A DNA stretch of 64,000 nucleotides from Veillonella sp. VA137 (GCF_003992015.1 NZ_RQVK01000001.1:124001-188000), one strand, 5' to 3'. Counted from the stretch's first letter, positions 4,342-15,233 are shown. Notes: a model not told the origin generated them from the sequence alone. Numbers and translations are program-made.

Positions 4342-4702
4342 AAGGAACGCAGTTAGGCGTAGCAGCCTTCGTGGCGCCCTTACTGACCAAATAACACAAA
4401 TACAAGAAGAGCACGACCTGCTCCGAACAAACATTATGAAATACCGTTTGTGAGGAGTATGCCGTGCTCTAACTATACTCTGAGAAACGCAGTTAGGCGT
4501 AGCAGCCTTCGTGGCGGTCCTTACTGACAAAATAATACAAACACAAGAAGAGCACGGCGTGCTCCGAACAAACATTATGAAATACCGTTTGTGAGGAGTA
4601 TGCCGTGCTCTTCCCTTTTTATCATATTCAATTAAGACCGCCACAAGGCTGCATAGCCTTACAAGTAACGACCCACGAGGCTGCATAGCCTAATTAGTGA
4701 CG
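4342..4702. repeat. Structured intergenic repeat, copy A (split by copy B)
   Basis: The left arm at about 4342-4379 (AACGCAGTTAGGCGTAGCAG and onward), the inner hairpin at about 4405-4472 and the right arm at about 4671-4702 match copies B and C. Copy B lies between the hairpin and the right arm of copy A, so the copies are nested. The inner apex (ACAAAC, 13-nt loop, GTTTGT) is identical in all three copies. One lower-stem pair is A-C here, or G-U if read as minus-strand RNA. The right end overlaps the stop codon of the RND pump gene at 4694. An open frame of about 135 codons across this region is a by-product of the repeats. Confidence 0.75.
4483..4670. repeat. Structured intergenic repeat, copy B (nested)
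   Basis: Outer arms at 4483-4519 and 4636-4670 are imperfect inverted repeats (GCAGCC on the left pairing with GGCTGC on the right). The inner hairpin is complete: GAAGAGCACGGC (4547-4558) pairs with GCCGTGCTCTTC (4602-4613), then a 3/3 internal loop, then CTCC (4562-4565) with GGAG (4595-4598), then GA opposite GA, then ACAAAC (4568-4573) with GTTTGT (4587-4592) around a 13-nt loop. A CCCTTTTT run follows on the plus strand, so this copy could also end plus-strand transcription. A shorter alternative hairpin, GAGCACGGCGTGCTC, is possible. Confidence 0.8.
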
Positions 4703-7700
4703 TTTAAATCCCATTTTTTCCATAATGATGAACAGCATAGGGATGATTGCCACTCCAAAGAATGTGGCTGTAATCATACCAAATACTACGGTCACACCCA
4801 AGGATGCACGGGCACCAGCACCGGCACCACTTGCCAACATCAACGGCAAACAGCCAATGATGAATGCTAAAGACGTCATCAAGATAGGACGTAAACGAAT
4901 CTTCGCGGCTTCAATAGCGGCATCTACATAATTCATACCTCTTTCATCGACACGAATCTTAGCATATTCAATGATCAAGATCGCATTCTTCGCCGCTAAG
5001 CCCACCAAGGTAAGCAAACCGATTTGGAAGTAAATATCCAAGGCAAAGAAATGTGTAGATTTCATCATGGCACCAATCATATTGAATAACCATGGGGCAA
5101 GTACAGCACCAAAGATACCTGTTGGAACAGATAATAGTACTGCAAATGGTACTTTCCAAGATTCATACAAGGCAGCCAACACAAGGAATACAAAGACAAT
5201 ACCGAATCCAAAGATAATCAACACTTGGGATCCCGCTTTGATTTCCTCACGAGTTTGTCCACCCCAATCATAGGTATATCCTTGTGGCAATGTATTTTTC
5301 GCCACTTCTTCTAATGCTTTGATAGCATCACCAGAGCTAACACCTTGCTTAGTATTACCACCAATGCTCACTGCTGGGAAGTTGTTATATCGTGTTACCA
5401 CAAAGGCAGAGGTTGTCTTCTGTGGTGTAATATATGTGTCAACTGGTACCATTTGACCTGCTGCATTACGTACTGTCAACAGATGATTCATACTTGGGTC
5501 TGTACGGAACTGATTGTCCGCTTGTAACATAACTTTATAGTTTTTACCAAACTTAGTAAAGTCATTTAACTGCATGCCACCATAATACCCTTGTAAAGCC
5601 ATATAAATATCTGTCACAGCTACGCCATCACGAGCTGCTCTATCACGATTCACATCAAAATTATAGGATGGTGTAGCCGTATTGAAAGTAGTATAAATAC
5701 TGCGGAATTCAGGGCGTTTTTGAGCTTCTACCAAGAATTGTTGCACCACTGCATTCATTTGTTCAGTACTATGACCTGCTTTATTGATAAGATACATGGA
5801 GAAACCACCAGTGTTGCCCAGACCTGGAATAGATGGCGGATTCAATGGAATAATTGTTCCTCGTGGATCTTTAGAACCATGCATGAAAGTATTTCGAATC
5901 TTTAAGCCAAGCTGTTGATCTGGTTGCGTTCTTTCACCCCAATCTGTTAAGGATGTAAAGATTACACCACCACTCGTTTGTGCTGCCCCAGCTAAGATAT
6001 CAAAGCCAGGTACTGTGATGGTCCCATCAGAATCTTTATCTTCGTTCAAGAAATGACCTAAATCAGTTAATACATCTTTTGTACGACTAGAAGTCGCCCC
6101 TGGAGGTAAGGATACAGCAACCATGAAATAGCCACTATCTTCAGCTGGTACGAATCCACTTGGCACCATACGCATCATACCAAAAGCTGCACCTAAGAAG
6201 ATAGCCAATGCCAACCATGTGGCCCATAGACGATTGGACCAACGAGCTAAAAGAATACCATACTGATCGATTCTTCGATCCAAGAATCCATTAAACCACT
6301 CCAAGAAACGACCCACTATATTAGTAGTCTCTTTTGGCTTATGTGGTTTTAACATAATACCACACAATGCAGGCGTCAATGTCAATGCTACAAAGGCAGA
6401 AATAATAACAGAAATAGCTACTGTTAAAGCGAATTGTTTATACAATACCCCCGTTAAACCACCCATGAAGGCCACTGGAACGAATACGGAAATCAATACG
6501 AAAGCAATACCAACAACAGGGCCTTGTACTTTTTCCATGGCTGCTACGGTAGCCGCCTTTGGTTTCAACCCATTGTAGCGCATTTCATATTCTACAGCTT
6601 CGATTACGACGATCGCATCATCCACGACGAGACCGATCGCTAACACCATGGCTAGCAAAGTCAATGTATTAACAGTAAAGCCCATTACTTGGAACGCCGC
6701 AAAAGTACCAATCAAAGATACTGGCACTGCAATCATTGGAATCACTGTAGACTGCCATGTTTGCAAGAACAAGTACACAATAATCGCTACGAGAATCAAG
6801 GCTTCTTCAAAGGTTTTTACTACTTCTTTCATAGAAGCTTTTACAAATTTTGTATTATCTACAATAATCTTCGCTTGCATATCCGGTGGGAATGCTTCTT
6901 CTTGTTGGTGAATAACCTCTTTTACAGCATTGATTGTTTCTAATGCATTCGCATCATTCGTTAAAGAAACAGCAAATACAGCTACTGGTTTATCATTGCC
7001 CGTTTCTTTTGAGAAACTTGTAGGCTCTACAGAATAACTTTGTGCCCCTAATTCAACACGAGCTACATCTTTTAAATGCAATAAATTATTCTTTTTATCC
7101 TTTTTAATAACAATATTTTCAAATTCAGAAATTTCAGCCAAACGACCTTGCACTTTTACAGATGTGTTGAACGCCTGATCTTTATCGATTGGGTCAGAAC
7201 CTAATGCACCCGCTGCAGCCTGTTTGTTTTGGCTACGAATTGCATTACTTACATCTGTAATAGTAACCCCAAATTTAGACATTTTTGTTGGGTCAAGCCA
7301 AATACGCATGGCATAATCAGCACCGAACTCTTGCACTGTACCCACACCATTCACAGATTTGATGGCATCCATCATATAGTTAGTGGCATAGTTTTTTAAG
7401 AAAGTTCTATCATAACTACCGTTTGGAGATACCAAGGAGAATACCATGGCCATATCCCCAGAAGATTTCGTAGTGGTCACACCTACCGTTTGTACTTCGG
7501 ATGGCAAAGATGCCAAGGCACGGGCTACACGGTTTTGTACGTTTACCGTATCCATATCGGCATCAGTTCCTTGCTCAAATTGAACTGTCAAGTTATAGGA
7601 ACCATCCCCTGTACTCGTGGATTGCATATAATCCATATTTTGGACGCCAACGATTTGTTTTTCGATGACTGCCGCTACCGATTCGCTTACAACCTCAGCA

Positions 7701-7858
7701 TTGGCCCCCATGTAGGCAGTACGTACCTGTACTTGCGGTGGAGAAATCTGTGGATATCTGTCGATCGGCAGTTTTGATAAGGAAATCAACCCTAGCAATG
7801 TAATAATAATAGAGATTACGATGGCAAAGATAGGGCGATTAATAAAGAATTTTGACAC
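4694..7858 (-). CDS. acrB: RND multidrug efflux transporter, AcrB/MexB (HAE1) family
   Basis: The 1054-residue length is typical of hydrophobe/amphiphile RND pumps. The N-terminus MSKFFINRPIFA is the classical first membrane segment. The proton-relay motif GLVVDDAIVVIEAVE lies near residue 411 in the fourth membrane helix and GLAAKNAILIIEYAK near residue 956, supplying the conserved Asp pair and Lys. Two large periplasmic loops flank these helices. It should work as a trimer in the inner membrane, exporting amphiphilic compounds with the adaptor encoded immediately upstream. No TolC-like outer membrane channel gene is in the window, so the channel must be encoded elsewhere. The last codons (CGT CAC TAA) lie within repeat copy A. 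The acrB symbol denotes the family, not proven orthology. Confidence 0.95.
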   Translation of the reverse strand: MSKFFINRPIFAIVISIIITLLGLISLSKLPIDRYPQISPPQVQVRTAYMGANAEVVSESVAAVIEKQIVGVQNMDYMQSTSTGDGSYNLTVQFEQGTDADMDTVNVQNRVARALASLPSEVQTVGVTTTKSSGDMAMVFSLVSPNGSYDRTFLKNYATNYMMDAIKSVNGVGTVQEFGADYAMRIWLDPTKMSKFGVTITDVSNAIRSQNKQAAAGALGSDPIDKDQAFNTSVKVQGRLAEISEFENIVIKKDKKNNLLHLKDVARVELGAQSYSVEPTSFSKETGNDKPVAVFAVSLTNDANALETINAVKEVIHQQEEAFPPDMQAKIIVDNTKFVKASMKEVVKTFEEALILVAIIVYLFLQTWQSTVIPMIAVPVSLIGTFAAFQVMGFTVNTLTLLAMVLAIGLVVDDAIVVIEAVEYEMRYNGLKPKAATVAAMEKVQGPVVGIAFVLISVFVPVAFMGGLTGVLYKQFALTVAISVIISAFVALTLTPALCGIMLKPHKPKETTNIVGRFLEWFNGFLDRRIDQYGILLARWSNRLWATWLALAIFLGAAFGMMRMVPSGFVPAEDSGYFMVAVSLPPGATSSRTKDVLTDLGHFLNEDKDSDGTITVPGFDILAGAAQTSGGVIFTSLTDWGERTQPDQQLGLKIRNTFMHGSKDPRGTIIPLNPPSIPGLGNTGGFSMYLINKAGHSTEQMNAVVQQFLVEAQKRPEFRSIYTTFNTATPSYNFDVNRDRAARDGVAVTDIYMALQGYYGGMQLNDFTKFGKNYKVMLQADNQFRTDPSMNHLLTVRNAAGQMVPVDTYITPQKTTSAFVVTRYNNFPAVSIGGNTKQGVSSGDAIKALEEVAKNTLPQGYTYDWGGQTREEIKAGSQVLIIFGFGIVFVFLVLAALYESWKVPFAVLLSVPTGIFGAVLAPWLFNMIGAMMKSTHFFALDIYFQIGLLTLVGLAAKNAILIIEYAKIRVDERGMNYVDAAIEAAKIRLRPILMTSLAFIIGCLPLMLASGAGAGARASLGVTVVFGMITATFFGVAIIPMLFIIMEKMGFKRH

Positions 7859-7867
7859 AATATCACC

Positions 7868-15004: not shown

Positions 15005-15013
15005 ATCATAGAT

Positions 15014-15040
15014 TGACTAGGTGGGAGTCGAACCACACGC
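15014..15040 (-). pseudogene. 3' remnant of a tRNA gene (T-arm and acceptor strand)
   Basis: On the minus strand GTGTGGTTCGACTCCCACC followed by TAGTCA resembles a tRNA T-arm (loop TTCGACTC, stem GTGG/CCAC with one base missing) and the 3' acceptor strand. The matching 5' acceptor, D-arm and anticodon arm are absent; upstream sequence is instead the structured repeat, copy C. A terminator follows. This looks like the leftover of a tRNA gene, and it could also be chance similarity. Confidence 0.4.
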
Positions 15041-15050
15041 TTCTCCTCAG

Positions 15051-15233
15051 AGGAACGCAGTTAGGCGTAGTAGCCTTGTGGCGTCTCTTTCTACTAAAAT
15101 GAGTCTAACCCAAGAAGAGCACGGTGTGCCCCGAACAAACATTATGAAATACCGTTTGTGAGGGGTATACCGTGCTCTTCCCTTTACACTATTTAGTTAA
15201 AACCGCCACAGGCTACATAGACTAACAAGAGAC
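15051..15233. repeat. Structured intergenic repeat, copy C
   Basis: Outer arms at 15051-15084 and 15201-15233 enclose the inner hairpin GAAGAGCACGGT (15114-15125) with ACCGTGCTCTTC (15169-15180), CCCC (15129-15132) with GGGG (15162-15165), GA opposite GA, and ACAAAC (15135-15140) with GTTTGT (15154-15159). Compared with copy B, three stem pairs change on both sides (lower stem C-G to T-A, CTCC/GGAG to CCCC/GGGG, outer arm GCAGCC/GGCTGC to GTAGCC/GGCTAC), so pairing is preserved. The right end contains the tyrS stop codon at 15222-15224. Confidence 0.8.

What the first reader, a model, noticed from the sequence alone, without database searches (positions are those of the whole stretch)
4342..15233. 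Structured repeat family with compensatory base changes (three copies)
Copies A (from 4342), B (4483-4670) and C (15051-15233) share imperfect terminal inverted repeats and an inner three-step hairpin. Between B and C three stem positions change on both sides so pairing is kept: the lower stem (C-G to T-A), the middle stem (CTCC/GGAG to CCCC/GGGG) and the outer arm (GCAGCC/GGCTGC to GTAGCC/GGCTAC). The apex (ACAAAC, 13-nt loop, GTTTGT) is identical in all three. On the plus strand the two symmetric mismatches read GA opposite GA, a known RNA tandem G-A motif. This suggests selection on RNA or cruciform structure. Inference: a small non-autonomous mobile element or RNA-based 3' element; I recognise no described family.
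Basis: partly seen in the sequence, partly recalled or inferred. Interest (0 to 1): 0.75.

Follow-up and report, generated by a model that had tools for sequence, protein, structure and literature searches.

The report
Self-targeting hairpin repeats at gene ends
The three copies belong to a large, apparently undescribed family of about 190-base DNA hairpins in two Veillonellaceae genera; they sit just after genes' stop codons in one orientation, keep their fold while their letters change, and insert into each other's tips, so they look like a hairpin-seeking mobile element with a possible second role at mRNA ends.

Summary
Copies B and C are complete; A is a truncated unit. The window's genome, probably Veillonella sp. 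Va137, carries about 50 core hairpins. All six held genomes of its genus are rich in them, the one held sister-genus genome has a diverged family, and other Negativicutes lack them. Structure is selected: among 104 representative copies 97.7% of stem cells pair, and 20 of 22 pairs use two or more pair types. At orthologous gene ends both-sided stem changes outnumber pair-breaking ones 834 to 106. Conserved G-T and GA/GA positions favour one strand, antisense to the upstream gene. The right end faces a stop codon 30:3 in this genome, 12:1 in unselected DNA of a second species and 15:1 in the sister genus; it often touches or supplies the stop (tyrS and the RND pump here). Copies insert into other copies' apex loops at one fixed position, with a probable 3-bp duplication. 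No IS200/605 (Y1), IS110 or integron recombinase was found. Best reading: a REP/MITE-like, hairpin-targeting mobile element fixed in 3' UTRs. The mobiliser and any mRNA function are unknown.

The parts
4342..4470 (+). copy A: left arm plus core hairpin, no right arm, stem damaged; runs into copy B
   Evidence: sequence, fold, profile and model hits
4481..4671 (+). copy B: complete element (left arm, core, right arm)
   Evidence: profile hit used
4673..4703 (+). second, tandem copy of the right arm; supplies the RND-pump stop codon
   Evidence: sequence
4694..4696 (-). TAA stop codon of the RND-type efflux pump gene (4694-7858), inside right-end sequence
   Evidence: ORF list
4404..4475 (+). 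core hairpin of copy A
   Evidence: model R1, 55.5 bits
4545..4616 (+). core hairpin of copy B
   Evidence: model R1, 83 bits
4568..4592 (+). apex of copy B (ACAAAC-ATTATGAAATACC-GTTTGT), the position where other copies are found nested in relatives
15047..15236 (+). copy C: complete element
15112..15183 (+). core hairpin of copy C
   Evidence: model R1, 81.9 bits
15135..15159 (+). apex of copy C
15222..15224 (-). TAG stop codon of tyrS (15222-16430), inside the right end of copy C
   Evidence: ORF list
14986..15004 (-). ordinary terminator-like hairpin about 45 bases beyond copy C, so copy C would lie in the tyrS 3' UTR
   Evidence: consensus scan only

Best explanation
This is a high-copy, non-autonomous palindromic mobile element of a REP/MITE-like kind whose targets are the tips of hairpins and the 3' ends of genes. 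Shown: a modular unit (left arm, core hairpin, right arm) that is found nested in the apex loop of other copies at one fixed position and orientation; a fold kept by compensatory change, with one strand favoured; a fixed polarity and close adjacency to stop codons. Inferred: an unidentified recombinase or transposase acting in trans recognises the folded apex, in single-stranded DNA or in a cruciform, and moves the element. Also inferred: once placed, copies are transcribed as 3'-UTR hairpins of the upstream gene and may protect or process mRNA ends, which would help keep them at orthologous sites.
For: About 50 cores in the genome and dispersal in all six held genomes of the genus; half-elements and tandem units; 13 distinct right-end and about 9 left-end junctions at the same apex position, giving a probable TGT duplication; one gene end seen intact in one species and nested in two others; covariation; apex conserved across two genera while stems differ; polarity at gene ends in two genera; plus strand more stable in 98 of 104 copies with RNA parameters.
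Against: No mobiliser found: no Y1_Tnp, integron integrase over cut-off, or IS110. Ends are not perfect inverted repeats. No clean insertion into unique DNA with a readable duplication. Sites at tyrS and the RND gene are occupied in all six species, as a host function would also predict. Block exchange between copies could make some of the junctions.
Confidence: 0.55

Rival explanations
1. Host-selected RNA element: a 3'-UTR hairpin that stabilises, terminates or processes the upstream mRNA (for example through RNase III), kept at each gene by selection; the dispersal was ancient and incidental.
For: Right end faces a stop codon 30:3, 12:1 and 15:1 in three genomes; tyrS and RND sites occupied in all six species; stems at orthologous sites change on both sides far more often than they break.
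Against: The favoured strand is antisense to the upstream mRNA; repeated nesting at one apex position is not expected of a host RNA element; the core lacks a strong T tract on either strand; no expression data.
Confidence: 0.28
2. Mutational palindrome correction: template switching or exchange between copies keeps the arms complementary without selection on structure.
For: Both-sided changes per orthologous site are bimodal, from none up to 13, so block exchange is common; long hairpins are prone to such correction (established knowledge).
Against: G-T at three neighbouring pairs (51, 32 and 78 of 104 copies) and the GA-containing internal loop persist at fixed places, where blind correction would have removed them; the apex is conserved across genera.
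Confidence: 0.1
3. Integron-like recombination site: the element works as an attC-like site that carries the gene before it.
For: Gene-stop-site order, fold favoured on the strand opposite to the gene, stems that vary while structure stays, and runs of small genes (toxin-like peptides, Rpn) each followed by an element.
Against: No integron integrase over cut-off in any of 29 family genomes. The junction lies in the apex, not at a GTT core site at the base. Many hosts are conserved single-copy genes such as tyrS and the RND pump, not cassettes.
Confidence: 0.07

Closest known systems
REP/BIME repeats, including CGTC-tagged REPs (PMC3733652)
   Same: Many short dispersed palindromes, mostly downstream of genes, composite arrangements, a CGTC motif at one end; CGTC REPs also lack a known transposase
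   Different: About 190 bases against 20-40; 20-bp core with conserved 13-15 nt apex; no Y1 transposase in the genome; fixed polarity to the stop codon
Palindromic MITEs such as ERIC, NEMIS/Correia and RUP
   Same: Non-coding, about 100-200 bases, long imperfect palindrome, often beside genes and likely transcribed
   Different: No sequence relation found here; imperfect ends; nests at one position in its own apex; strand-specific covarying core
BOX elements of pneumococcus
   Same: Modular, with an internal module that repeats in tandem between end modules (own knowledge)
   Different: No sequence relation known; covarying 20-bp core and gene-end polarity
REP-targeting insertion sequences IS1397, ISKpn1, IS621 (PMC1525189)
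   Same: Insertion into palindromic repeats
   Different: Those are autonomous IS; here a non-coding repeat is found inside copies of itself, and IS110-type transposases are absent
Integron attC sites
   Same: Variable sequence with conserved fold, placed after a stop codon, fold favoured on the strand opposite to the gene
   Different: No integron integrase; junction in the loop; hosts are conserved chromosomal genes

Membership tests
MITE (non-autonomous transposon) | Dispersed, non-coding, high copy number | tested here: met
MITE (non-autonomous transposon) | Terminal inverted repeats | tested here: inconclusive
   Inner parts of the arms pair (0.82-0.86 of cells), the outermost bases do not match (ATCGTC against GAGGAACGC)
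MITE (non-autonomous transposon) | Target-site duplication | tested here: inconclusive
   Probable TGT at apex insertions; none readable in unique DNA
MITE (non-autonomous transposon) | Autonomous partner with the same ends | tested here: inconclusive
   None seen in the loci read; the whole genome could not be scanned for every transposase family
REP with RAYT | IS200/605-type tyrosine transposase (Y1_Tnp) in the genome | tested here: not met
   PF01797 absent from the window's genome, control genomes positive
CGTC-tagged REP | 20-40 bp unit with 8-9 bp stem and 4-5 nt loop | tested here: not met
   About 190-base unit, 20-bp core, 13-15 nt apex; definition from PMC3733652
Integron attC site | Integron integrase in the genome | tested here: not met
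   TIGR02249: 0 of 29 family genomes over the cut-off
IS110-type element with bridge RNA | IS110 transposase (PF01548) | tested here: not met
   No match in the six genomes of the genus nor in the sister genus
Described RNA family (Rfam 15) | Match at a family's gathering score | tested here: not met
   relaxed search gave only chance-level hits
mRNA 3'-end functional element | Transcribed and changes mRNA end or half-life | not testable with these tools
   No expression data available

The most novel reading that the evidence does not exclude
A new hairpin-tip recombination system: an unknown recombinase of two Veillonellaceae genera recognises the folded apex (T-TAY-GAWA-RTA-CC) on the strand opposite to the gene and inserts elements, and perhaps gene-plus-element units, into other hairpin tips; this would resemble attC recombination in logic but use an unrelated enzyme and a cut in the loop.
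Probability: 0.2. Interest if true: 0.85.

Novelty: new variant of a known kind. Interest (0 to 1): 0.62.

Why it matters
Few bacterial repeat families show such clean structural covariation together with a fixed strand, a fixed relation to stop codons and repeated self-insertion at one loop position. The material allows direct tests of two open questions: how REP/MITE-like elements without a known transposase spread, and whether palindromic 3'-UTR repeats are kept for the element's sake or for the host's mRNA. If the apex binds a dedicated enzyme, the conserved loop with exchangeable stems is a ready-made substrate for finding it.

Tried and rejected
Rfam at gathering and at relaxed E-value: nothing real. 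Plasmid and phage records and viral contigs: no match. RAYT, integron integrase and IS110 as mobilisers: not found. Rpn (PF12784): 3-7 copies in all six genomes of the genus, 1 of 23 other family genomes, some copies beside elements, but 0 in the sister genus that has the hairpins, so not required. A clean empty site in unique DNA: two near cases with blurred edges, so no duplication could be read there. Element as a classic terminator: the core has no strong T tract, and an ordinary terminator-like hairpin lies beyond copy C. G-T versus A-C asymmetry as a general strand test: strong only at four pairs (131 against 29 overall; outside those pairs 33 against 27), so the strand claim rests on the conserved wobbles, the GA loop and folding energies. 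Positional conservation in loci L076-L175 is biased because they were fetched by the apex pattern; the context figures quoted come from sets not chosen that way.

Full report
Observation. Copies A, B and C are present as described. B (4481-4671) and C (15047-15236) are complete. A (4342-4470) is a left arm plus core that runs into B; its stem is damaged. B is followed by a second right-arm copy (4673-4703). The right end reaches into the neighbouring genes: the TAA of the RND-type pump gene (4694-4696) and the TAG of tyrS (15222-15224) lie in element sequence.

Where it occurs. The window's genome has 56 BLASTN matches. A covariance-model search of 25 sources covering nearly all of these gave about 50 separate core hairpins. 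All six held genomes of the genus are rich in the element (41-76 BLASTN matches; 68-79 model matches, capped and possibly counting both strands). In 796 kb of strain 3891 taken without regard to the element there are about 26 cores. BLASTN finds none in 23 genomes of other Veillonellaceae genera. The model finds a diverged family in the sister-genus genome G006, and a model built from those copies finds the first genus back at about 1e-13. Among 301 Negativicutes genomes only these seven are convincing; one further genome has a single weak hit (E 4e-5), not followed up. Plasmids, phages and viral contigs give nothing.

Structure. Among 68 distinct cores 94.5% of stem cells pair, against 79.9 +/- 0.5% when right-hand letters are shuffled between copies. 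In 104 representative full-length copies 97.7% of cells pair and 20 of 22 pairs use two or more pair types. Stems come in many versions (GAGCACGG, GCCCATGG, GACCGCAA, ACGAGCAA and others) and combine with either of two main apex types. Outer arms coevolve more weakly (0.86 paired against 0.79 when arms are swapped between copies for the inner arm). At orthologous gene ends 834 stem differences are both-sided Watson-Crick exchanges, 325 stay within Watson-Crick or G-T, and 106 break a pair (pairs of genomes, not independent events). The counts per site are bimodal, so block exchange between copies contributes.

Selection or copying of one arm. Blind palindrome correction would remove mismatches. 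Instead three neighbouring pairs keep G-T at high frequency (51, 32 and 78 of 104) with the T nearly unchanged, and the internal loop contains GA on both sides in most copies. This argues for selection on the folded plus strand. The plus strand folds better in 98 of 104 copies with RNA parameters (mean -37.5 against -31.4 kcal/mol) and in 82 of 104 with DNA parameters. Outside four pairs the G-T/A-C asymmetry disappears, so the strand claim is moderate.

Apex. The plus-strand apex of the sister genus, CTTACGATAGTACCA (also CTTGCGATAGCACCA), lines up with ATTATGAAATACC (also ATCATGAAATGCC and ATTACGTAGTGCC) as T-TAY-GAWA-RTA-CC, with a three-pair mini-stem that itself covaries. The loop form therefore looks older than the split of the two genera, while stems turn over.

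Position and polarity. The right end faces a gene's stop codon in 30 of 33 usable cases in Va137, 12 of 13 in the unselected stretches of strain 3891 and 15 of 16 in the sister genus, where the distance is mostly 10-50 nt. In Va137 the stop is often directly adjacent or inside the end. The tyrS and RND sites hold an element in all six species, although the apex type at tyrS differs between species.

Mobility. Elements are found inside the apex of other elements. Thirteen distinct right-end junctions read [C/G]TAATG[T/A]|AT[CT]GTC, and about nine left-end junctions resume the target at TGTTTG, giving a probable 3-bp TGT duplication. One gene end has an intact element in Va142, the first half plus a nested element in Va137, and a nested element plus the second half in strain 3891. 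The sister genus shows a comparable nested arrangement (L291). Half-elements and tandem left-arm-plus-core units are common. These are marks of a mobile or recombining repeat. The enzyme is unknown: Y1_Tnp, an integron integrase over cut-off and IS110 were not found, and Rpn nucleases are not needed, since the sister genus lacks them.

Interpretation. The reading that fits most is a REP/MITE-like element that targets hairpin tips and gene 3' ends and is recognised through its fold on the strand opposite to the gene. A host role at mRNA 3' ends is plausible and may coexist; no expression data were available. Membership in REP with RAYT, CGTC REP, attC or IS110 fails on tested features. It resembles attC logic and REP-targeting insertion sequences (PMC1525189) without belonging to either.

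Limits. Loci L076-L175 were fetched by an exact apex pattern and over-represent apex type 1. Copies are related, so counts are not independent events. No clean insertion into unique DNA was read. The open-access library holds only part of the literature, so 'undescribed' means not found here.

Noticed in passing
L129-L111-L098 joined (strain 3891 contig 18), joined coordinates 6999, 10139, 21216, 22647, 23332, minus strand; also L073, L074, L057: Repeated cassettes with 25-26 aa hydrophobic peptides (MKKFRKIDLLILTLKLLVHLIDWFK and relatives) behind GGAGG, inside palindromic GCCTAACG repeats, often between elements; they look like type I toxin-antitoxin units. One peptide has a sub-cut-off match to Pfam Hol_Tox.
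   Followed up: partly
L065, L071, L037, L140, L130, L038: Rpn-family (PDDEXK_2, PF12784) nuclease genes with an element directly at the stop codon and another element upstream; 3-7 copies per genome in this genus, almost absent from the rest of the family.
   Followed up: partly
window 15014-15046: A stretch that reads like the 3' end of a tRNA (GTGTGGTTCGACTCCCACC on the minus strand) directly beside copy C; ARAGORN finds no tRNA. Also present in strain 3891.
   Followed up: partly
L072, L018, L110, L172: The right arm alone (about 30 bases, CGTCACTTGTNNCGCTATGTAGCCTGTGG) is repeated in tandem two or three times beside some elements, so the end module can multiply by itself.
   Followed up: no
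L266 (G037 contig 3, 67360-67421): Single weak match of the sister-genus model (E 4e-5) in another family of the order; could be chance or a distant relative.
   Followed up: no
L073 and L074 beside the toxin-like cassettes: A further short repeated palindrome, GCAAACTAAGCAAAGCGCAAGTTTGC.
   Followed up: no
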